A stretch of DNA of 40,210 nucleotides, from positions 1 through 40,210 of the forward strand of contig QGVE01000008.1 of NCBI GenBank assembly GCA_003242675.1, given 5' to 3'. The notes below the pieces were generated by a model. It worked only from the letters and a program-made list of their open reading frames with translations, was not told where the DNA came from and made no database searches. Positions 31,319 to 40,210 of this stretch are shown one piece after another. Origin of the DNA: Bacillota bacterium (GTDB lineage: Bacteria > Bacillota_E > Symbiobacteriia > Symbiobacteriales > Symbiobacteriaceae). Position 1 is the stretch's first letter. Each line of letters begins with the position of its first letter. Made by a program: the position numbers and the translations under genes.

Positions 31319-31413
31319 CGCGGCCGCGCGGAACCGGGATGACAGATCCGGCGAAAGAATAGGGTGACCTGAGAGGATATTGGCCCGATAAGGACGAATA
31401 AAGCGAGACAGAC

Positions 31414-31431
31414 TGAATGGCTATTCATTCA
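31414..31431. promoter_or_regulatory. FadR-like operator
   Basis: TGAATGGCTATTCATTCA matches the published Bacillus subtilis FadR consensus TGAATGAMTANTCATTCA at all but one defined position. It lies 49 bases upstream of the FadF-like gene. In B. subtilis, FadR is a TetR-type repressor released by long-chain acyl-CoA. No fadR gene is in this window. Confidence 0.7.
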
Positions 31432-31479
31432 TATGGTGTGGGGAGTAGGAGCAACCGTGGCCGACAAGGGGGAGGCAGC

Positions 31480-33567
31480 ATGATCCTGGCAACCCGGTCC
31501 GTGTACTGGAACATTGCGAACAGCCATATCCTCTACTTCTTTTTCATCGCGGCGGTGGCGGTCTTCGCCTACGGCCTGTGGCAGCGCATCCGGCTGTGGT
31601 TCGTGGGCACGCCGGAGGTTCGCTGGGACCAGGTCCGTGACCGGCTCCGGAGGGCCTGGCGGCACGCGGCGCTGCAGCGCCGGCTCGCGCAGAACCGCGT
31701 CGCCGGCGTGTTCCACCTCTTCCTGTCGTGGGGGTTCGTCATCCTCTTCATCGGCACCCTGGTGGTCATGATCCACGAGGACCTGCGGATCCGGATCATG
31801 CAGGGCGCGTTCTACCTCTGGTTCCAGTCGCTGGTCCTGGACATCGCCGGCCTCCTGGCCCTGGTTGGCGCCGTGATCGCCTGGGTGCGCCGGGGCGTGT
31901 TCAAACCCCGCGCCCTCACGAAGGTGGCGGAGACGAAGGCGCCGCTGGACGACTGGGTTTATCTGCTGCACATCGTGCTGATCCTGTGGACCGGCTTCTG
32001 GGTGGAGGGCATCCGGCTCGTGGCCACCGACGACCCGTGGGCGGCGTGGTCGCCCGTCGGCCTGGTCCACGGCCGCATCCTGGCCAGCTTCCTGTCGCTG
32101 GAGGCGCTGCTGGTCCTGCACCGGGTCCTCTGGTGGTTCCACATGCTCCTCTCGTTCGCATTCATCGCCCTCGTGCCGTACACCAAGATGGTCCACATCC
32201 TCACCGGCCCCCTGAACGTCTTCCTCTCCGACCTCCGGCCGGCGGGCGTCCTGGCCGCGACCGACCTGGAGGCCGAGAACCCGGTGCTGGGGGCGGCGAC
32301 GCTCTGGGAGTTCACCTGGAAGGACCTGGCTGACCTGGACGCCTGCACCGAGTGCGGCCGCTGCCAGGAGAACTGCCCGGCCTTCCTCACCGGCAAGCCG
32401 CTCAACCCCAAGAAGCTGATCCTCGACCTGCAGCGCCACCTGCACGAGCGCGGGCCGCTGCTCGCCCTCGCGGCGATGAAGGGCGAGCGCCCCAGGGAGC
32501 AGCCCTTCGAGTCGGAGCTGGTCGGGCCCGTGGTGGATCCCGAGGCGCTCTGGGCGTGCACCACCTGCCGCGCCTGCATGGAGGTCTGCCCGGTCTTCAT
32601 CGAGCACGTGCCCAAGATCGTGGAAATGCGCCGCCACCAGGTGATGCTGCAGGGCGAGTTCCCGGCCGAGCTGAACCAGACGTTCAAGAACCTGGAGCGG
32701 CAGGGCAACCCGTGGGGCATGGGCGCGCACACCCGCACGGCGTGGACCGAGGGCCTGAACGTCCCGCTCCTGGCCGACAAGCCCGATGCCGAGTACCTGT
32801 TCTGGCCCGGCTGCGCCGGCGCGTTCGACCAGCGGGGGCAGAAGATCGTGCGGGCGATCGTTCAGCTCCTGGACCAGGCGGGCGTCTCCTACGCCATCCT
32901 CGGCCCCGAGGAGAAGTGCACCGGCGACGCCGCCCGCCGGGCCGGCAACGAGCTGCTCTTCCAGCAGCTGGCGATGGAGAACATCGAGACGCTCCAGCGC
33001 TACGGCGTGAAGAAGATCATCACCCACTGCCCGCACTGCTTCCACACCTTCGACAAGGACTACCGGGCGATGGGGCTGGACGTCGAGGTCATCCACCACA
33101 CCCAGCTGCTCGCCCGGCTGGTGAGGGAGGGCCGACTGAAGCCGGTGAACGCGGTGGCCGCGACCGTGACCTACCACGACTCCTGCTACCTCGGCCGCTA
33201 CGGCGGCGAGTACCAGGCCCCGCGGGAGCTCCTGGCCGCCCTGCCCGGGGTGGAGCTCAGGGAGATGGAGCGGCACGGCCCTACCGCGATGTGCTGCGGC
33301 GCCGGCGGGGCGCGGATGTGGATGGAGGAGCACCACGGCACCCGCATCAACGTGGAGCGCACCTGCCAGGCCCTGGCCACCGGCGCGACGACCATCGCCA
33401 CCAACTGCCCGTTCTGCATGACGATGCTCTCCGACGGGGTGGCCGCCCAGGACAGCAGCGACCAGCTGCGGGTGCTGGACGTGGCGGAGCTTCTGCTGCA
33501 GGCCGTGGGTACCGGTGGGGGGCCGGAGGCCGCGGCGGCCGTTGCACAGTCGGGCGAAAACGAGTAA
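31480..33567 (+). CDS. fadF: FadF-like membrane Fe-S oxidoreductase
   Basis: 695 residues. Residues 1-260 hold about six membrane helices with conserved histidines, as in NarI/HdrE-type cytochrome b subunits. Two 4Fe-4S sites follow (CTECGRCQENCP and CTTCRACMEVCP). CCG-type segments come last: EEKCTGDAARRAGNEL, HCPHCFHTF, DSCYLGRYGG and MCCGAGGARMW. This is the architecture of FadF/YwjF, thought to pass electrons from electron-transfer flavoprotein to quinone during fatty-acid oxidation. ATG 31480 follows GGGGGAGG. The FadR-like site upstream fits this role. Etf genes are not in the window. Confidence 0.88.
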   Translation: MILATRSVYWNIANSHILYFFFIAAVAVFAYGLWQRIRLWFVGTPEVRWDQVRDRLRRAWRHAALQRRLAQNRVAGVFHLFLSWGFVILFIGTLVVMIHEDLRIRIMQGAFYLWFQSLVLDIAGLLALVGAVIAWVRRGVFKPRALTKVAETKAPLDDWVYLLHIVLILWTGFWVEGIRLVATDDPWAAWSPVGLVHGRILASFLSLEALLVLHRVLWWFHMLLSFAFIALVPYTKMVHILTGPLNVFLSDLRPAGVLAATDLEAENPVLGAATLWEFTWKDLADLDACTECGRCQENCPAFLTGKPLNPKKLILDLQRHLHERGPLLALAAMKGERPREQPFESELVGPVVDPEALWACTTCRACMEVCPVFIEHVPKIVEMRRHQVMLQGEFPAELNQTFKNLERQGNPWGMGAHTRTAWTEGLNVPLLADKPDAEYLFWPGCAGAFDQRGQKIVRAIVQLLDQAGVSYAILGPEEKCTGDAARRAGNELLFQQLAMENIETLQRYGVKKIITHCPHCFHTFDKDYRAMGLDVEVIHHTQLLARLVREGRLKPVNAVAATVTYHDSCYLGRYGGEYQAPRELLAALPGVELREMERHGPTAMCCGAGGARMWMEEHHGTRINVERTCQALATGATTIATNCPFCMTMLSDGVAAQDSSDQLRVLDVAELLLQAVGTGGGPEAAAAVAQSGENE

Positions 33568-33628
33568 AGTCACAGTGTGGAGGCGCCGTGGGGCCCACGG
33601 CGCCTCACCTTTGGGGAGGGTGTGCGGA

Positions 33629-34600
33629 GTGCTGCCGATCCATCAGATCACCCTGCCGCTGCCCGCGGGCCCGGGAGCGGTGCACGTCTACGCGATCCGT
33701 TCCGATCCGATTACGCTGATCGATACCGGGGTCAACATCCCCGACTGCCGCGCGGCCCTGGTCGACGGCCTGAAGAGGCTGGGCCTCCGGGTGCGGGACA
33801 TCCGTCGGGTGCTCCTCACCCACGCCCACGTCGACCACATCGGCCTGGCGGGCTGGGTGCAGGAGGAGGCCGGCGCGGAGGTGTACCTCCACCCGGACGA
33901 AGCGGCGAAGGCCGAGATGGCCCCCTGGTGGCAGGAGGCGCGCGACCGGATCCTGAGGGAAGCCGGGGTCGACCCGGAAGGGTTCGCCCTGATCGAGTGG
34001 TTCTGGCAGCTCAACCGCCAGCTGCTCCTGCCCCTGCGCAGCTGGCATCCGATCGCCGACGGCCAGGTGTTCGAATTCGACGGCGGCCGGCTGGAGGCGG
34101 TCCACCTGCCCGGCCACGCCCTGGGGCACACCGGCTTTCTCGACCGGGACACCCGGCGGCTGATCGGCGGCGACCACCTGCTGGACGGCATCACGCCCAA
34201 TCCCATCCTGGAGCCGGTGCCGCCAGGGCACCCCGACGCCGTGCCGCACGATCCCGACCGGGCCCTGACCCTGGGCCAGTTCTTCCGGTCGCTGGACCGC
34301 GTGGCCGGCCTGGATGTGGCGGAGGTGCTTCCGGGCCACGGCCCCGTCATTGCGGACCACCGCGCCGTGGCCGAGCGCTACCGGGTGACGCACGAGCGCC
34401 GGCTGGAGAGCCTGCTGCAGCGGCTGGGCGCCGGGCGCAGCCCCTGGGAGCTGACCCGGGAGCTTTACCCGCACGTGACGGGGTTCGATCACTTCCTCGC
34501 CCTGTGCGAGGTCCTGGCCCACCTGGACCTGCTCGTGGTGCAGGGGCGGGCCCGCTACTCCCTGGCGGAGGGGCACAGTCAGTACAGGGCCGCGACCTAG
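33629..34600 (+). CDS. MBL-fold metallo-hydrolase
   Basis: A 323-residue metallo-beta-lactamase-fold hydrolase. Metal motifs are LLTHAHVDHIGL, HLPGHALGHTGF, IGGDHLLDG and LPGHGPVI. The C-terminal third is helical, as in the RNase BN/glyoxalase II-like single-domain families with a winged-helix-like end (ELTRELYPHVTGFDHF). The substrate is unknown. GTG 33629 follows GGGGAGGG, 61 bases after the FadF-like gene, likely in the same transcript. LACTB2/hydroxyacylglutathione hydrolase-type annotations would be possible, but I see nothing decisive. Confidence 0.85.
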   Translation: MLPIHQITLPLPAGPGAVHVYAIRSDPITLIDTGVNIPDCRAALVDGLKRLGLRVRDIRRVLLTHAHVDHIGLAGWVQEEAGAEVYLHPDEAAKAEMAPWWQEARDRILREAGVDPEGFALIEWFWQLNRQLLLPLRSWHPIADGQVFEFDGGRLEAVHLPGHALGHTGFLDRDTRRLIGGDHLLDGITPNPILEPVPPGHPDAVPHDPDRALTLGQFFRSLDRVAGLDVAEVLPGHGPVIADHRAVAERYRVTHERRLESLLQRLGAGRSPWELTRELYPHVTGFDHFLALCEVLAHLDLLVVQGRARYSLAEGHSQYRAAT

Positions 34601-34639
34601 GCGGCCGTGCCGGCCATGTAGACGGTGAGGTGAGAGGCT

Positions 34640-35404
34640 GTGGGTTCGGGATCCGCAACGGCCGCCCTGCAGGTCGCCGCAGCGGCCGGGGTCGTGCTGC
34701 TCCAGTCCGGGGCCGACGTGGCGCGGGTGGAGGACACCGTCTCCCGGATCCTGCGGGCCTACGGGGTGGACGAGCCCGAGATCTACGCGACGCCGACCGG
34801 CATCTTCATCAGCGTGGCCGATGAGCAGACCACCGTCGTGCGGCGGGTGCGGACCCGGACCCTCGCGCTGGACCGGGTGAGCGCCGTGAACGCGCTGTCC
34901 CGGGCGCTGGCGGCCGAGCCGAAGCCCCCGAGCGAGGCCCTGCGGACCATCCGGGCCATCGCGGAACAGCCGCCGCCCTTCCCCCGCTGGCTGGACGTCC
35001 CGGCCAGCGGCCTGGCCGCGGCGGCGGCCACGGTGCTGGTGGGCGGCTCGCTGCCCGGGGTGCTGCCCGCGTTCTTGGCCAACCTGGTCGTGCAGGCCGG
35101 CGAGCGGGTCTGCCGGTGGCTGGGGCTGCCGGACGCGGTGACCGACCTGATCAGCGGCGCCAACGCGGTCTTCTGCGCGACGGTGCTGCACCGGTGGCTC
35201 GGCGTGCCGGTCGGCCCGGTGGTGGCCGGCGGCATCATGATCCTGGTGCCCGGCATCGCCTTCACCAACGCCCTGCGGGATGCCATCGCCGGCGACCTGG
35301 TGAGCGCCACCGCCCGGGGGCTGGAGGCCTTCATCAAGGTCACCGCCCTCGCCGTCGGGGTCGGCGCCGCGCTCTTTCTGGTCGGGGGAGATGCGGTGCT
35401 GTGA
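34640..35404 (+). CDS. ThrE-type exporter, N-terminal-domain subunit (DUF1212)
   Basis: A 254-residue membrane protein of the ThrE_1/YjjP group. It has the soluble N-terminal part with LLQSGADVARVEDTVSRIL and TPTGIFISVAD, then about five helices from residue 115 on. These include the GGIMILVPGIAFTNALRDAI segment. In two-gene members it works with the small ThrE_2 subunit in export of amino or dicarboxylic acids. GTG 34640 follows GGTGAGAGG. It overlaps the next gene by GTGA. Confidence 0.85.
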   Translation: MGSGSATAALQVAAAAGVVLLQSGADVARVEDTVSRILRAYGVDEPEIYATPTGIFISVADEQTTVVRRVRTRTLALDRVSAVNALSRALAAEPKPPSEALRTIRAIAEQPPPFPRWLDVPASGLAAAAATVLVGGSLPGVLPAFLANLVVQAGERVCRWLGLPDAVTDLISGANAVFCATVLHRWLGVPVGPVVAGGIMILVPGIAFTNALRDAIAGDLVSATARGLEAFIKVTALAVGVGAALFLVGGDAVL

Positions 35405-35814
35405 TCACCTATCCCTTCGCCTTTCTGACCTCGGCGGCCATTGCCGTCTCCTTCCGCTCGCCCCGCGGTGTTATCCTCTGGAGCGGCTTCTGCGGCCTGG
35501 TGGCCTGGGCGGGGTTCGACCTTGCCTTGCGGGCCGGGGCTCCCGATCCGGCGGCGGTGCTGGTCGGCGCGCTCGCCCTGGGCACGGCCGCCGAGGTGCT
35601 GGCCCGGCGGCTGCACCAGCCGGCCATCCTGTTCGTCATCCCCGGCCTCTTCCCGCTGGTCCCCGGCATCCTCGCCTACCGGGGCATGCTGCTGCTCAGC
35701 CAGAGCCGGCTGGCGGAAGGGGCGTGGCAGCTGGCCCGGGCGCTGCTGATCGCGGGCATCCTCGCCGCCGGGCTGGCCGTCCCGCCGGTCCTGTTCCGCC
35801 GCTGGCGGCGATGA
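35401..35814 (+). CDS. ThrE-type exporter, C-terminal-domain subunit (DUF3815)
   Basis: A 137-residue membrane protein of the ThrE_2/YjjB group with about four helices. The conserved FVIPGLFPLVPGILAYRGM is present, as is RSPRGVILWSGFCGL. GTG 35401 overlaps the preceding stop (GTGA), indicating translational coupling with the larger subunit. Together they form a split ThrE-like transporter. Confidence 0.85.
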   Translation: MITYPFAFLTSAAIAVSFRSPRGVILWSGFCGLVAWAGFDLALRAGAPDPAAVLVGALALGTAAEVLARRLHQPAILFVIPGLFPLVPGILAYRGMLLLSQSRLAEGAWQLARALLIAGILAAGLAVPPVLFRRWRR

Positions 35815-36011
35815 AGGGCGCCCCGGGCAGGGGCTCGGCAGTGAGCAGGACCGCGCACTTCACGAGGGCCGCTCCGGTGCCCCGGGCAGGGGGCTCGGCA
35901 CCCCAGGGCGCCCCTCAGGCGGTAATCCTCCTCGGCCGGCGGGAGCCCGGACGGCACCGGCTCGGGGGCGGCGGAGGGCAGGAGCCCGTGCGGCCCGGAT
36001 GGAAAGAATAG
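35811..36011 (+). CDS. Possible small ORF of low confidence
   Basis: 66 codons starting at an ATG that overlaps the ThrE_2 stop (ATGA). The product is Gly/Ala/Pro/Arg-rich and includes a repeated nucleotide block (PGRGSA and PRAGGSA). No ribosome binding site, domain or membrane segment is visible. It may be chance in high-GC DNA; the underlying DNA contains a direct repeat. Confidence 0.2.
   Translation: MKGAPGRGSAVSRTAHFTRAAPVPRAGGSAPQGAPQAVILLGRREPGRHRLGGGGGQEPVRPGWKE
35824..35902. repeat. Two direct repeats of GCCCCGGGCAGGGGCTCGGC type
   Basis: GCCCCGGGCAGGG(G)GCTCGGCA occurs near 35820-35840 and again near 35879-35901, with a one-base G-run difference. The second copy also forms a hairpin with GGTGCC/GGCACC arms. 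It lies in the 200-base gap before the Spx-like gene. Confidence 0.45.
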
Positions 36012-36029
36012 ACCGCAGAGGTGAGCGCC

Positions 36030-36395
36030 GTGAAGCCCGAGGTGACCTTCTTCACCTACCCGACGTGAACGTCGTGTCGGAAGGCCAAGCAGTTGCTTGA
36101 GGCAAAGCCGGTAGAGGTGCATGAGCGCCGGTTCTTCAGCGAAAAGCCCACGCCCGAGGAGGTGCGGTGGCTGGCGGCCCGGCTCCCCGGCGGTGTGCGG
36201 GACCTGATTTCGACCCGCAGCCGGCGCTACAAGGAGCTGGGGCTGGAAGGCCGCCAGCTCACCGACGACGAGCTGGTGGAGCTCCTGGCGGCCGAGCCGG
36301 GTCTCTGGCGGCGGCCGGTGGTCGTTCGCGGGGACCAGGTGGTCGTCGGGTATGACCCCGCCCGCCTGGAGGAGCTCCTGGGCGGGGGCGAATGA
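36030..36395 (+). CDS. Spx/ArsC-family protein with in-frame UGA (candidate selenocysteine, UxxC)
   Basis: 121 residues if the UGA at 36066-36068 is read as selenocysteine. GTG 36030 follows AGAGGTGA. The N-terminus reads VKPEVTFFTYPT-U13-TSC16RKAK, matching the Spx CxxC site (YTSPSCTSCRKA) and the ArsC catalytic Cys. The rest fits Spx closely: ERRFFSEKPTPEEV, RDLISTRS (57-64), PGLWRRPVVV (Arg/Pro pair at 94-96) and VGYDPARLEELL. The part after the UGA (36093 on) lacks a start with a sensible binding site and would lose the thioredoxin-fold first strand and active site. A nonsense mutation is the main alternative. It lies 14 bases before glpP. Confidence 0.8.
36084..36103 (+). promoter_or_regulatory. 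Candidate bacterial SECIS hairpin
   Basis: Stem GCC-AAGC (36084-36090) pairs with GCTT-GGC (36095-36098, 36101-36103), with a two-base GA bulge and apical loop AGTT. The G at loop position 2 lies 24 nt downstream of the UGA. A small stem-loop with G in the first two loop bases about 16-37 nt after UGA is the recognised bSECIS pattern. Confidence 0.6.
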
Positions 36396-36408
36396 TGACG
36401 AAAGCGAG

Positions 36409-37050
36409 ATGGTGGCCGTGGCGGAGCGGCGGCGCAGCGAGGGCGCGGCATTGCTCGCCGAGGCGCTGAGGGCGCACCCCGTGATCGCGGCGGTGCGGGA
36501 CGAGCGGCGGCTGGAGGAGGCCCTGCGGTCCCGCTGCCGCACCGTGTTCCTGCTGTCCACCACCCTGGCCCGCCTGGGGGAGGTGGGCGGGGCGGTGGCG
36601 GCGGCCGGCAAGCTGCTGTTCATCCACCTGGACTTCGTCGCGGGGCTCGGCCGGGACGAGGAGGCCGTGGAGTACCTGGCCCGGGTGGCGCGCCCGGCGG
36701 GGCTCATCACCACCCGCACCAACCTCATCCAGACGGCCCGGCGGCTGGGGCTCACGCCGCTTCAGCGGCTCTTCCTGCTGGACTCCCAGTCGCTCACCAC
36801 GGGCATCGAGGCGGCCCGCGCCAGCCGGGCCGAGGTGGTGGAGGTGCTGCCGGGGATCATCCCCCGGGCCGTGCAGGCCATCCGGAGCCAGCTGCCCAAC
36901 ACCCTGATCATCGCCGGTGGGCTGGTGCGCACACCCCGGGAGGTGGGGCGGGCCCTGCAGGCCGGCGCCTCCGGGGTCTCCACCAGCCGCGCCGACCTGT
37001 GGAACGCCGACCCCGCGGCGTTCGCGGCCGCCGCGGAGCCGGATCCGTGA
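36409..37050 (+). CDS. glpP: GlpP-type glycerol-3-phosphate-responsive antiterminator
   Basis: A 213-residue GlpP-family protein. In Bacillus subtilis it binds glycerol-3-P and mRNA leaders to prevent termination in glycerol operons. Motifs include PVIAAVRDERRLEEAL, FLLSTTLARLGEV, LLFIHLDFVAGLGRDEEAV, GLITTRTNLIQTARRLG, FLLDSQSLTTGIE and EVLPGIIPRAV. The TIM-barrel end is IIAGGLVRTPREVGRALQAG. ATG 36409 is chosen; the binding site is weak, consistent with coupling to the Spx-like gene 14 bases upstream. No glpF, glpK or glpD is near. Confidence 0.9.
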   Translation: MVAVAERRRSEGAALLAEALRAHPVIAAVRDERRLEEALRSRCRTVFLLSTTLARLGEVGGAVAAAGKLLFIHLDFVAGLGRDEEAVEYLARVARPAGLITTRTNLIQTARRLGLTPLQRLFLLDSQSLTTGIEAARASRAEVVEVLPGIIPRAVQAIRSQLPNTLIIAGGLVRTPREVGRALQAGASGVSTSRADLWNADPAAFAAAAEPDP

Positions 37051-37086
37051 CCTGACCTGAAGGAAGCGACCCGGACATATGCGTAA

Positions 37087-37109
37087 GGCGGGCCCTCCGC
37101 GGGTCCGCC
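37087..37109 (+). terminator. Hairpin between glpP and radical SAM gene
   Basis: GGCGGGCCC/GGGTCCGCC with a TCCGC loop (one G-U). It is followed by ACTGCTCTGC. It could be a terminator of glpP or an attenuator in the leader of the next gene. Confidence 0.5.
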
Positions 37110-37133
37110 ACTGCTCTGCAACGGGGAGGTTGT

Positions 37134-38249
37134 GTGACCGTGGGGGAGTGGGGACTGCTCGCAGATCCCTGGGAGCCGCGGGGCGGCATGGTGGACGGCC
37201 GCTTCCGGCTGACCAGCGTGGAGATTACGGTGACCAACTGGTGCAATCTGCGCTGCCGCCACTGCGCGGTCGGCGAGTCGCTGATGGACCGGGACCCCGA
37301 GCGGCTGCCGCTGGACCTGGTCCTGCGCCGGCTGGACGAGGTCGAGGGGCTGGCCACGCTCAGCCTCACCGGCGGCGAGCTGAGCGGCTCGACCGAGGTG
37401 CTGCGGAACTGGGTCCTCCCGCTCCTGCAGTACGCCAAGGGGCGGGGGCTGCGGACGCAGGTGAACACGAACCTGACCTTCGACCTGGAGCGCTACGTGG
37501 AGATCGCCCCGTGGGTGGACGTCTTCCACATCACCTGGAACTACCGGGACGAGGAGCACTTCCACCGCATCGTCTGGGGCCGCGGGCGTGCGGACGTCTC
37601 GCCGGAGGCGTCCCGGCGGCTGTACCACCGGATCATCACGAACGCCCGCGCGCTGGCCGCGCGGGGGTGCTTCGTCTCCGCCGAGACGATGGTGAACACG
37701 GAAACCGCCGACCACCTGGGGGCGATGAACCGCTTCCTGGCCCAGATCGGCTGCCGGCGGCACGAGGTCCATCCCATGTACGCGGTGGACTGGGCGGCGG
37801 ATCTGCCCGTGCTGCCGCTCCCGGCCTTCCGGGAGGCGATCCGCCGCTTCCTCGCGGAGCGGGATCCCGACCTGTGGGTGCTCTTCGGCACCTTCCCCTT
37901 CCTGCCGTGCAGCCCCGTGCCGGAGGACCAGGAGCTGCTCCGGGCGGTGGCTGCCGCCCCGAACGTGTCGATCCGCAACTGCCCGGACGGCCGGAACCGG
38001 GTGAACGTGGACCTCTTCACGGGGAACATCCGGGTGACGGACTTCGGCGGGATGGAGCCGCTGGGCAACGTCCGGACCGACAGACTGGAAGACGCGTTCC
38101 GCCGCTGGCACGCGCATCCCCGCTTCCAGCGGCTGAACTGCCACTGCCCCGAGGTGGGCTGCACCGGGCCCGACCTGCTGGTGGCCGAGATGTACTACCC
38201 GGAGGTGGACTTCCGCACACGGCGGGCGATCGTGCCCACCGGGGCCTGA
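37134..38249 (+). CDS. yfkAB: Radical SAM/CxCxxxxC-motif protein (YfkAB-like)
   Basis: A 371-residue radical SAM enzyme. The cluster-binding site is NWCNLRCRHCAVG (CxxxCxxC), followed by LSLTGGELSGSTEVL. The C-terminal NCHCPEVGCTGPDLLVAEMYY holds the CxCxxxxC motif that defines the YfkAB group. A conserved Cys also occurs in IRNCPDG. Its reaction is unknown. GTG 37134 is taken; GTG 37140 has better spacing from GGGGAGG and may be the true start. It stands after glpP with an 83-base gap. Confidence 0.88.
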   Translation: MTVGEWGLLADPWEPRGGMVDGRFRLTSVEITVTNWCNLRCRHCAVGESLMDRDPERLPLDLVLRRLDEVEGLATLSLTGGELSGSTEVLRNWVLPLLQYAKGRGLRTQVNTNLTFDLERYVEIAPWVDVFHITWNYRDEEHFHRIVWGRGRADVSPEASRRLYHRIITNARALAARGCFVSAETMVNTETADHLGAMNRFLAQIGCRRHEVHPMYAVDWAADLPVLPLPAFREAIRRFLAERDPDLWVLFGTFPFLPCSPVPEDQELLRAVAAAPNVSIRNCPDGRNRVNVDLFTGNIRVTDFGGMEPLGNVRTDRLEDAFRRWHAHPRFQRLNCHCPEVGCTGPDLLVAEMYYPEVDFRTRRAIVPTGA

Positions 38250-38264
38250 CGCACCAGGGCGCGC

Positions 38265-38297
38265 GAGGCCGGGGGTTCGCACGGAACCCCCGGCCTC
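38265..38297. terminator. Bidirectional terminator after radical SAM gene
   Basis: A 14-bp stem GAGGCCGGGGGTTC/GAACCCCCGGCCTC between the convergent radical SAM and NUDIX genes; TGCCGCG follows. Confidence 0.75.
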
Positions 38298-38307
38298 TGC
38301 CGCGTCA

Positions 38308-38326
38308 GGCGGCCGGCACGGCCGCC
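38308..38326. terminator. Second hairpin near NUDIX 3' end
   Basis: A perfect GGCGGCCG/CGGCCGCC stem with a GCA loop, 10 bases from the NUDIX stop. It may terminate the minus-strand transcript. Confidence 0.55.
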
Positions 38327-38335
38327 GGCGGCCCC

Positions 38336-38779
38336 TCACCGGATGCGGTTGCGGGACGGGTCGGGATAGAAGTGGTACCGCACGGTGCCGCCGTCCAGCC
38401 AGTGGCGCAGCGGCTCCAGCCACGGGCGCCACCGGATGTACCGCTCCACCTCGGAGGTGGGCACCCACTTCACCCCGGAGATCTCCCCCGGGGCCGGGGA
38501 GAGGATACCGCCGATCGGCCTGGCGCCGAAGAAGAACTGGACGAGGTGCTCCCTCGCCTCCGCATTCCGGAACTCGGTGATGAAGGCGAGGTCGCCGATC
38601 TCCACCTCGATCCCCGTCTCCTCGCGCACCTCCCGCGCCGCGGTCTCCGCCAGCAGTTCCCCCGGCTCCCAATGGCCCTTGGGCAGCCCCCAGTGACCGC
38701 GCCGGTTCCGCACCAGGAGGATGGCTCCCTCGTGCAGGACGAGGCCGCCGGCGGAGAGGTGCCTTCGCAAGTGCTGCAT
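38336..38779 (-). CDS. NUDIX hydrolase
   Basis: A 147-residue NUDIX pyrophosphohydrolase. The Nudix box is GHWEPGELLAETAAREVREETGIEVE, cited here by its GX5EX7REVXEETG pattern at residues about 40-62. It is preceded by LSAGGLVLHEGAILLVRNRRG, typical of MutT/diadenosine-tetraphosphatase-like members. The substrate is unknown. ATG 38779 follows GGGAGCGG at good spacing; an ATG six codons earlier is less likely. Confidence 0.9.
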   Translation of the reverse strand: MQHLRRHLSAGGLVLHEGAILLVRNRRGHWGLPKGHWEPGELLAETAAREVREETGIEVEIGDLAFITEFRNAEAREHLVQFFFGARPIGGILSPAPGEISGVKWVPTSEVERYIRWRPWLEPLRHWLDGGTVRYHFYPDPSRNRIR

Positions 38780-38880
38780 GGCTACCGCTCCCATCACACG
38801 GGCCGTATGTGCCCATGATACTACCCCGCCACCGCAGGGGCAAGCCGCGCGCCGGGGCCGCGCGCTCTCCCCGGCCCATC

Positions 38881-38918
38881 CGGACGCGCCCCTCGGCCAG
38901 GCGGCGTGGGCGCGTCCG
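38881..38918. other. Unassigned hairpin in divergent intergenic region
   Basis: Arms CGGACGCGCCC and GGGCGCGTCCG (11 bp, perfect) around a 16-base loop, between the divergent NUDIX and ABC exporter genes. It lies where no transcript is expected to end. It is upstream of a TTGACA-type promoter for the exporter. Confidence 0.5.
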
Positions 38919-38933
38919 GGATGATCAGCACAA

Positions 38934-38963
38934 TTGACAGTTGACCGAGCGAAGGAATATCTG
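38934..38963 (+). promoter_or_regulatory. Possible sigma-A promoter of ABC exporter gene
   Basis: A consensus -35 TTGACA (38934-38939) with an 18-base gap to TATCTG (38958-38963), in an AT-rich patch before the exporter. A second AT-rich -10-like TTATAGAT lies near 38981. Only the -35 is strong. Confidence 0.4.
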
Positions 38964-39019
38964 CGCGATGGGCGAAGTTCTTATAGATAAACGTTACCTA
39001 CCGTTGAGGAGTTGGGCAC

Positions 39020-40210
39020 ATGCACGTGTTCAAGCGCCTCCGGCGTTTTTTCCTGCCGTACATCGCGTGGGGGCTGGGGTCGGTGCTGGCGATGGCCTGC
39101 CTGACCGCAGCGGGGCTGGTGCGGCCGTGGCTGCTGGAGCAGCTGATCGACCGCGTCATCCGGGAGCGGCGGTTCGCGGAGCTGCCGTACTGGACCGCGG
39201 CGGTGCTGGTGGTCGCCCTGGTGCGCGGCGTGTTCAACTTCCTGCGCCAGTATCTGGGCCACGTCTTCGGGCAGAACGCGACCTTCGACCTGCGGAACGC
39301 CCTGTATGACAAACTGCAGTACCTGCACTTCAAGTACTACGACAACGCGTACACCGGCGACCTCATGTCCCGCGTCACCGCCGACGTCGAGGCGTTCCGG
39401 ATGTTCCTCTCCTTCGGCTGGGTCCACCTGATGGACATGCTCTTCATGACCCTCTTCTCGCTGGTGCTCATGCTCTCGATGTCCGTGCGGCTGACAGTGG
39501 TCACCCTGCTGGTGATGCCCTTCCTGCTGGTCGTGGTGCTCCGGTTCGAGCGACAGGTCCGCCCGGCGTTCACCCGGGTGCGGGAGGCCCTCGCCGGCCT
39601 CTCCACCGCGGCGCAGGAGAACCTGAACGGGATGCGGACCGTCAAGTCCTTCGCCCGGGAGCCCTTTGAGGTCGAGAAGTTCGCCGCCCACAACCGGGAG
39701 TACCTGGAGGCCAACCTGGCGACCACGGGTCTCTGGGCGCGGTACTTCCCCGCCATCGAGCTGCTCTCCAACCTCGCCCTCATCGTGCTGCTCGCGTACG
39801 GGGGCCTGCTGGTGCTCCAAAGCGAGCTCTCGCTGGGCGAGTTGGTGGCCTTCAACAGCCTCATCTGGTACTGGATCGTGCCCATGCGGGAGATTGGGTA
39901 TCGCATCAACGAGTTGACGCAGGCCATCGCCTCCGGCGAGCGGCTGCTGGAGGTGCTGGAGCACCCGGTGGCCGTCCAGAGCCCGCCGAATCCCGTCCGC
40001 CTGCCGGCGATGAAGGGCCACGTGCGCTTCGAGGGGGTCTGGTTCCAGTACGACTCGCCGCAGCCGGGCACGGGCGAGGTCAGTCCGCACCCGGCCCTGG
40101 CGGACATCACCATCGACGCTCCGCCCGGCAGCGTCATCGGGATCATCGGCGCCACCGGCTCCGGCAAGTCGACCCTGGTCTCGCTGATCCCCCGGTTCTA
40201 CGACGTGACG
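39020..40210 (+). CDS. ABC exporter, membrane plus ATPase domain (partial)
   Basis: 397 codons seen, with the 3' end outside the window. The type I exporter membrane domain (about residues 15-310) includes GQNATFDLRNALYDKLQYL and the coupling segment YYDNAYTGDLMSRVTADVEAF. ENLNGMRTVKSFAREPFEV also fits this family. The nucleotide domain begins near residue 335 (VRFEGVWFQYD) and Walker A IIGATGSGKSTLV is present; the frame runs off at RFYDV. This half-transporter type exports lipids, drugs or peptides. ATG 39020 follows GAGGAG. The substrate is unknown. Confidence 0.92.
   Translation, partial: MHVFKRLRRFFLPYIAWGLGSVLAMACLTAAGLVRPWLLEQLIDRVIRERRFAELPYWTAAVLVVALVRGVFNFLRQYLGHVFGQNATFDLRNALYDKLQYLHFKYYDNAYTGDLMSRVTADVEAFRMFLSFGWVHLMDMLFMTLFSLVLMLSMSVRLTVVTLLVMPFLLVVVLRFERQVRPAFTRVREALAGLSTAAQENLNGMRTVKSFAREPFEVEKFAAHNREYLEANLATTGLWARYFPAIELLSNLALIVLLAYGGLLVLQSELSLGELVAFNSLIWYWIVPMREIGYRINELTQAIASGERLLEVLEHPVAVQSPPNPVRLPAMKGHVRFEGVWFQYDSPQPGTGEVSPHPALADITIDAPPGSVIGIIGATGSGKSTLVSLIPRFYDVT

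What the first reader, a model, noticed from the sequence alone, without database searches (positions are those of the whole stretch)
36030..36395. Spx/ArsC-family gene with UGA at the redox cysteine: candidate selenocysteine (UxxC) Spx-like protein
Seen: an open frame interrupted by a single TGA at 36066-36068. Upstream codons 36030-36065 give VKPEVTFFTYPT behind a good ribosome site, and downstream codons give TSCRKAK and a full Spx/ArsC-like body (ISTRS, PGLWRRPVVV, VGYD). The UGA falls exactly where Spx has its first redox Cys and ArsC its catalytic Cys. Known: Sec commonly replaces such a Cys (UxxC). Inferred: the UGA is decoded as Sec, giving a selenol version of the Spx disulfide switch or an ArsC-like reductase. 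A conventional annotation would miss the N-terminus and active site.
Basis: partly seen in the sequence, partly recalled or inferred. Interest (0 to 1): 0.92.

Follow-up and report, generated by a model that had tools for sequence, protein, structure and literature searches.

The report
Selenocysteine version of Spx-like protein
A small bacterial redox protein related to the stress regulator Spx is cut short in annotation because an apparent stop codon in its active site is almost certainly read as the rare amino acid selenocysteine, as it seems to be in many relatives.

Summary
At 36030-36395 (+) a 121-codon gene with a good ribosome site is interrupted once, by TGA at 36066-36068, where Spx has its first redox Cys; with TGA read as Cys it passes the Spx/MgsR family cut-off. 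At the 72 matches found in 154 genomes of the class this codon is TGA (58) or TGC/TGT (14); a 90%-identical relative has TGT. SelB or a high-scoring tRNA-Sec was found for 55 of 57 TGA but 5 of 13 Cys places in the main count, not corrected for kinship. Downstream of the UGA, 59 TGA sequences share an invariant G and a hairpin that on average far exceeds synonymous recoding; in 13 Cys sequences it does not. So it is very probably a SECIS-directed selenoprotein. Function is inferred: Spx and alpha-CTD contact residues are kept and the ArsC GRPPE motif is missing, favouring an Spx/MgsR-like redox regulator over an arsenate reductase. Sec proteins assigned to the Spx subfamily were tabulated from ocean metagenomes in 2008 as 'Arsenate reductase 2': a new member of a known kind.

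The parts
36017..36024 (+). ribosome-binding site AGAGGTGA, 5 nt before the start codon
   Evidence: read; the same AGAGGTGAG stands before the ATG of the Cys-form relative
36030..36395 (+). gene for a 121-residue Spx/MgsR/ArsC-family protein, GTG start, TGA stop at 36393-36395 (a second TGA follows)
   Evidence: dN/dS; model with mean pLDDT 88.7
36066..36068 (+). in-frame TGA, codon 13, read as selenocysteine (Sec13, the U of U-T-S-C)
   Evidence: 58 TGA and 14 Cys codons among 72 homologous places; covarying hairpin downstream
36075..36077 (+). TGT, Cys16, the predicted resolving partner of Sec13 (UxxC)
   Evidence: column 16 of alignment A1: 41 Cys, 6 Ser, 1 Ala of 48
36084..36103 (+). predicted bacterial SECIS hairpin: 5-bp core 36086-36090/36095-36099, loop AGUU 36091-36094 with the conserved G at 36092; base of the stem bulged in this sequence
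   Evidence: fits the bSECIS constraints read in PMC13188914 section 5; not exceptional as a single sequence

Best explanation
The gene encodes a selenoprotein of the Spx/MgsR branch of the ArsC family. The UGA at codon 13 is decoded as selenocysteine by SelB and tRNA-Sec, directed by a hairpin 18-37 nt downstream (about 0.95). Sec13 replaces the first Cys of the Spx CxxC switch and is predicted to form a reversible selenenylsulfide with Cys16 at the start of helix 1 (about 0.75, inferred). The most likely role is that of a redox-sensing partner of RNA polymerase: the oxidised U-S form, bound to alpha-CTD, would alter transcription of redox genes as the C10-C13 disulfide of Spx does, with selenium making the switch faster and easier to reset (about 0.55, inferred from kept residues only).
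For: Sec decoding: 58 TGA, 14 TGC/TGT and 0 other codons at 72 places in 70 of 154 genomes. SelB or tRNA-Sec (56 bits or more, a threshold I chose) for 55 of 57 TGA places against 5 of 13 Cys places in the main count. In the near family tRNA-Sec 5 of 5, SelB 4 of 5, SelD with its own UGA in 5 of 5. Hairpin: mean 7.08 pairs against 4.84 +- 0.12 (maximum 5.17) under 200 synonymous recodings in 59 TGA sequences; 3.77 against 3.48 +- 0.24 in 13 Cys sequences; G at +26 from the U in 59 of 59. Covariation score 0.310 against 0.157 shuffled (0 of 500) and at most 0.096 when slid. A close relative carries TGT. Spx-like role: TIGR01617 above cut-off; equivalents of Spx G52, R60 and R92 kept as G55, R63, R95, residues that PMC2801614 ties to alpha-CTD contact, promoter contact and anion binding (passages); alpha-CTD Tyr263 and Lys267 equivalents kept in a relative's RpoA.
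Against: No experiment. The window's own genome is not held. The association of TGA with Sec machinery shrinks to 2 independent pairs on supported branches (5 on all) and is not significant by that test. Two TGA genomes show neither SelB nor tRNA-Sec (G055, G115), and one family genome, G001, with TGA lacks SelB over the cut-off. In the window the hairpin region alone is no more stable than shuffles (z 0.01 to -1.24) and a longer stretch prefers a competing fold. L017, also TGA, folds at only -6.2 kcal/mol, five TGA sequences form only 4 of 8 pairs, the G at +26 is also in 10 of 13 Cys sequences, and two Cys sequences fold at -8.0 and -9.5. The number of stem pairs changed on both sides (3) is not above shuffles (2.5). 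For the regulator role: the strict Spx models are below cut-off; the K66 equivalent is Glu; 7 of 48 aligned members (one of them a Cys form) have Ser or Ala for the second Cys, which fits an enzyme at least as well there; neighbours give no hint.
Confidence: 0.8

Rival explanations
1. It is a selenoprotein, but an enzyme (arsenate reductase or another glutaredoxin-dependent reductase) and not a transcription regulator.
For: ArsC Pfam match. Published names for Sec-containing relatives are ArsC-like, arsenate reductase or arsenate reductase-like. Distant class members have UxxS or UxxA, as a one-thiol enzyme would.
Against: TIGR00014 (arsC) 61.1 bits against a cut-off of 106.05. The C-terminal GRPPE motif of PDB ArsC chains 3rdw and 3f0i is replaced by GYDP; that its Arg is catalytic (R107 of plasmid R773 ArsC) is recalled. 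No ars-type Pfam match among the neighbouring ORFs scanned, a part of those in the window and in L102-L105.
Confidence: 0.35
2. The TGA is a real stop; a truncated protein of about 100 residues is made from the downstream TTG, as annotated, or the gene is decaying.
For: Gene calls in the database start downstream of codon 13 in 69 of 87 hits. The hairpin in the window alone is not exceptional.
Against: The N-terminal 12 codons are conserved (dN about 0.04, dS about 0.50) and hold strand 1 of the fold. 58 of 72 places share the TGA and the other 14 all have Cys. On average the hairpin excess goes with TGA.
Confidence: 0.03
3. UGA is reassigned or read through in general (for example as Trp) in this lineage.
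For: The frame is open when TGA is read.
Against: Neighbouring genes in the window end with TGA. The alternative residue at this site is Cys at 14 of 14 non-TGA places. Relatives have SelB, tRNA-Sec and a UGA-containing SelD.
Confidence: 0.01
4. Sequencing or assembly error of a Cys codon in this one record.
For: A 90%-identical relative has TGT at this codon.
Against: The other 4 of 5 genomes of the family have TGA there, as do two Chloroflexi records.
Confidence: 0.01

Closest known systems
'Arsenate reductase 2', cd03032, UxxC, 42 sequences, in the Global Ocean Sampling selenoproteome (PMC2398784, table passage seen)
   Same: Sec-containing protein with UxxC; cd03032 is named ArsC_Spx in PMC8755942 (passage), i.e. 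the Spx subfamily
   Different: Marine reads, and no occurrence of Spx in that main text. The lineage here is Symbiobacterium and its class plus Chloroflexi, with Spx contact residues and SECIS covariation examined. Whether the 42 sequences fall in this clade was not tested.
Spx (B. subtilis) and MgsR
   Same: Fold family, CxxC/UxxC position, G52, R60 and R92 equivalents, alpha-CTD partner residues
   Different: Sec for Cys10; shorter (121 against 131 residues); 42-44% identical to two Bacillales Spx/MgsR-type proteins in A1; below the cut-off of the strict Spx models
ArsC_rel_Se_1 (NF041106), 'ArsC family (seleno)protein'
   Same: ArsC fold with Sec/Cys at the same site; listed as arsenate reductase-like, UxxC, in PMC13188914 (table passage)
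   Different: 36.9 bits against a cut-off of 85 for the window; the best E-value among the 48 members of A1 (8.8e-15) is that of L003 at 55.2 bits, so none should pass
ArsC-like selenoproteins of Desulfotalea psychrophila and Desulfuromonas acetoxidans (PMC1794560, table passages)
   Same: Sec in an ArsC-like protein

Membership tests
Selenoprotein (UGA decoded as Sec) | in-frame UGA aligned with Cys in homologues | tested here: met
   58 TGA and 14 TGC/TGT of 72
Selenoprotein (UGA decoded as Sec) | SECIS hairpin: loop 3-9 nt, stem 4-16 bp, G in the first two loop positions, 16-37 nt from the UGA, MFE at most -7.5 | tested here: met
   window: loop AGUU, 5-bp core, 22 nt, -7.7 kcal/mol for the 24-nt fragment (model); covariation in relatives. 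Caveat: no more stable than shuffles as a single sequence, and a competing fold in a longer stretch
Selenoprotein (UGA decoded as Sec) | Sec machinery in the organism | tested here: inconclusive
   own genome not held; near family SelB 4 of 5, tRNA-Sec 5 of 5, SelD 5 of 5
Selenoprotein (UGA decoded as Sec) | selenium found in the protein | not testable with these tools
   needs 75Se labelling or mass spectrometry
Spx/MgsR family (TIGR01617) | family score over the curated cut-off | tested here: met
   86.2 against 75.05
Spx proper (NF002459, NF009210, NF009885) | family score over the curated cut-off | tested here: not met
   82.3 against 123; 50.2 against 159; 47.6 against 152
Spx/MgsR family | alpha-CTD contact: Gly52 in Spx, Tyr263 in alpha | tested here: met
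   G55 in the window; SYNCLKR in RpoA of G008 aligned with the B. subtilis-type chain of 6wvj/7f75; RpoA of the window's own genome not seen
Spx/MgsR family | binds RNA polymerase and controls transcription by redox state | not testable with these tools
   needs binding and transcription assays
ArsC arsenate reductase (TIGR00014) | family score over the curated cut-off | tested here: not met
   61.1 against 106.05
ArsC arsenate reductase (TIGR00014) | C-terminal GRPPE-type motif with catalytic Arg (role recalled) | tested here: not met
   GRPPE in 3rdw, 3f0i and L006; GYDP in the window; G107 followed by an aromatic residue in 46 of 48
ArsC_rel_Se_1 (NF041106) | family score over the curated cut-off | tested here: not met
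   36.9 against 85

The most novel reading that the evidence does not exclude
A selenium-based redox switch acting directly on RNA polymerase: a Sec-Cys selenenylsulfide in an Spx-type alpha-CTD ligand controls transcription in Symbiobacterium and in Sec-using relatives across its class and some Chloroflexi, and is changed to the all-sulfur form in some lineages (as in the S. thermophilum-like genome).
Probability: 0.45. Interest if true: 0.8.

Novelty: new member of a known kind. Interest (0 to 1): 0.6.

Why it matters
Known bacterial selenoproteins are mostly enzymes and thiol oxidoreductases (general knowledge and the tables seen); a Sec-containing putative regulatory protein (FmdB family) has been listed from ocean data (PMC2398784, passage). 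If this Spx-like protein binds RNA polymerase, selenium would sit inside a gene-regulation switch whose all-sulfur form is well studied, and the Sec/Cys pair in sister Symbiobacterium species (90% identical proteins) gives a natural comparison of what selenium adds. It also shows a clade whose active site is cut off by standard annotation.

Tried and rejected
Plain stop or pseudogene, general UGA reassignment and single-record error were rejected (see rivals).

Single-sequence folding of the window did not by itself show a significant hairpin; only comparison across relatives did. The kinship-aware test of TGA against Sec machinery had too few pairs. Genome context gave nothing on function: the YfkB-type radical SAM neighbour recurs near the gene in G008, G007, G005 and G001, but in L102-L104, outside that family, the neighbouring ORFs scanned differ (LigB, MFS, HpaB, FAA hydrolase, molybdopterin enzyme, ETF, M20 peptidase). 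Rfam (gathering scores) and tRNA scans of the window found nothing, and a DNA search with 36030-37050 found no match in the plasmid records. Attempts at the SelD UGA context failed, half worked in 61 and worked in 62. In one search the script aligned L097 to a wrong place; its codon was then read by translation and by eye.

Literature: searches listed no paper naming a Sec-containing Spx in this open-access library; of the papers listed I looked into PMC1794560, PMC1242214, PMC13188914, PMC9312934, PMC2398784, PMC8755942, PMC2801614, PMC9723677 and PMC1273633 by passages (and section 5 of PMC13188914); in the last two the only 'ArsC' matches were the name Arscott. Subscription papers are not covered and supplementary files were not read.

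Full report
What is there. The gene at 36030-36395 (+) starts at GTG behind AGAGGTGA and runs for 121 codons with one in-frame TGA at codon 13, 36066-36068. With TGA as Cys the protein matches Pfam ArsC (E 9.5e-22), passes the cut-off of the Spx/MgsR family TIGR01617 (86.2 against 75.05) and fails those of strict Spx, arsenate reductase and the seleno-ArsC family NF041106. Its best solved relatives are Bacillus Spx chains, with codon 13 on the first redox Cys. An AlphaFold model from an alignment of 48 sequences (mean pLDDT 88.7, pTM 0.77) puts residue 13 just before helix 14-24, behind strand 4-9, which a start after the TGA would delete. A fold search could not be run.

Origin. No whole genome is held for the window. 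It is 86-89% identical to a 12-kb stretch of genome G008 over most of 31385-40209, in the same order, with about 1.9 kb extra in G008; the G008 contig is 3,566,135 bases long, which I recall as the length of Symbiobacterium thermophilum. The window is therefore taken as another Symbiobacterium species.

The codon in relatives. A protein-guided scan of named genomes gave 7 loci: codon 13 is TGA in L001 (Symbiobacteriaceae) and in L003 and L004 (Chloroflexi), and TGC or TGT in L002, L005, L006 and L007. In the class of G008, 70 of 154 genomes have a match at E up to 1e-8, at 72 places; weaker matches were not listed. I read codon 13 at all 72: 57 TGA, 10 TGC and 3 TGT among 70, TGC in L098 and TGA in L097, in sum 58 TGA, 14 Cys, none other. 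One Cys copy (L059, second copy in G084) ends 19 codons on and may be decayed. Four of five genomes of the near family have TGA; G008 has TGT with 90% protein identity to the window. The tree of 75 rows, without the trait's own residue, needs at least 7 changes between U and C, 2 forced by starred branches; it is a quick tree with few columns and many open forks, and the direction of change is not inferred.

Machinery. SelB over its cut-off was found in 102 of 154 genomes. For tRNA-Sec I set 56 bits, above the Rfam gathering score of 47, because many class genomes without SelB score near 50 and three control genomes without SelB over the cut-off pass the gathering score; I take those as other tRNAs, unchecked. 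One or both were found for 55 of 57 TGA places and 5 of 13 Cys places (Fisher p 5.3e-6, not corrected for kinship). Adding L097 (its genome has SelB and tRNA-Sec) and L098 (its genome has SelB) makes 56 of 58 and 6 of 14. The kinship-aware test had 2 to 5 pairs and decides nothing. In the near family SelD has an in-frame UGA in the UGCK context in 5 of 5 genomes, followed by a hairpin whose loop begins with G.

The SECIS. Counting from the U of UGA as 0, most relatives can form 18-25 with 36-29, loop 26-28 (GUG, GGA, GGC and the like); the Symbiobacterium side forms 20-24 with 33-29, loop AGUU. After dropping L001 (same as L018) and one identical sequence, 59 TGA sequences average 7.08 pairs (8 in 32, 7 in 12, 6 in 8, 5 in 2, 4 in 5 sequences) against 4.84 +- 0.12 (maximum 5.17 of 200) when synonymous codons are redrawn, and -11.5 against -5.8 kcal/mol (60 redraws). 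Thirteen Cys sequences give 3.77 against 3.48 +- 0.24 and -4.1 against -4.0, though L059 and L025 fold at -9.5 and -8.0. Slid controls for the TGA set gave 3.1-4.0 pairs, except +1 with 6.07, which brings one of the two registers that I allowed onto the other. G at +26 is present in 59 of 59 TGA and 10 of 13 Cys sequences. In 51 aligned TGA sequences (50 distinct; not those of the window's side, L004 and L043) 89.8% of cells pair (80.4% shuffled), and the covariation score is 0.310 (0.157 shuffled, 0 of 500 as high; at most 0.096 when slid); 37 cells changed on both sides against 15.1 shuffled, but the number of such pairs, 3, is not above shuffles (2.5). In the 7 sequences of the window's side all 35 cells pair, with one two-sided change (19 of 500 shuffles as high). 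The window's hairpin meets the bSECIS constraints that I read in section 5 of PMC13188914: 22 nt spacing, 4-nt loop with GU, 5-bp core, -7.7 kcal/mol. Against this, the window's own sequence is no more stable than shuffles and a longer stretch has a competing fold, L017 (TGA) folds at -6.2, and L016 (TGT) keeps a similar relic at -5.9, as expected of a recent change from Sec to Cys but not proof of its direction.

How it probably works. Passages of PMC2801614 say that Spx has a C10-X-X-C13 disulfide that is oxidised in the active form, that G52 of Spx and Y263 of alpha form part of the contact, and that R60 and R92 serve promoter contact or bind an anion. The window has U13, C16, G55, R63 and R95 at these places, and the RpoA of G008 reads SYNCLKR at Y263-K267 (Lys267 as a contact residue is recalled). 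The K66 equivalent is Glu. Each of the five family genomes showed one match only, so no Cys paralogue stood out. The ArsC C-terminal motif GRPPE, present in 3rdw, 3f0i and L006, is GYDP here. This supports, without showing, a Sec-Cys redox switch on RNA polymerase. More distant class members with UxxS or UxxA (7 of 48 in A1 lack the second Cys, the Cys form L002 among them) may be enzymes instead, and the enzyme rival remains open for the window's protein too.

What is known. PMC1794560 (passages) lists ArsC-like selenoproteins in Desulfotalea and Desulfuromonas and 12 selenoproteins in S. thermophilum, none ArsC-like. PMC2398784 (passages) lists 'Arsenate reductase 2', cd03032, UxxC, 42 sequences; PMC8755942 (passages) names cd03032 ArsC_Spx. 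PMC13188914 (passages and section 5) and PMC9312934 (passages) list arsenate reductase (UxxS) and arsenate reductase-like (UxxC) selenoproteins, with no occurrence of Spx. So Sec in the Spx subfamily was recorded under an enzyme's name, and I found no discussion of it as a regulator in the searches. I rate it a new member of a known kind with an unusual, testable function.

Noticed in passing
L037, L066, L068, L071, L072, L079 (class members): ArsC/Spx-type proteins with TGA at the same codon but Ser or Ala at the second Cys position and SECIS-like hairpins; perhaps a separate selenoenzyme group.
   Followed up: partly
L003 10001-10357 and L004 (Chloroflexi MAGs): Chloroflexi homologues with TGA at codon 13 and an 8-bp SECIS-like hairpin; judged by their first residues, the 17 database hits to L003 start after the codon (16 of 75-98 residues, one of 190).
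   Followed up: partly
L016 / L099 (G008): The S. thermophilum-like genome has TGT at codon 13 and a weak hairpin resembling that of its TGA relatives: a natural Sec/Cys pair with the window, 90% identical.
   Followed up: yes
window 37134-38249 (+): YfkB-type radical SAM gene; its counterpart lies near the Spx-like gene in genomes G008, G007, G005 and G001 too; a functional link is untested.
   Followed up: partly
window 36352-37050 (+): Glycerol-3-phosphate responsive antiterminator (GlpP family) directly downstream; the listed ATG start overlaps the Spx-like gene, so its true start is probably further down.
   Followed up: no
RF01852 search of 14 control genomes: The Rfam gathering score for tRNA-Sec is passed in Caulobacter, Thermus and Thermotoga, which show no SelB match over its cut-off, so counts at that score may overstate Sec decoding.
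   Followed up: partly
L059 (G084, second copy): Cys-coding (TGT) paralogue in a genome that also has a TGA copy (L057), with a stop 19 codons after the site: a possible decaying duplicate.
   Followed up: no
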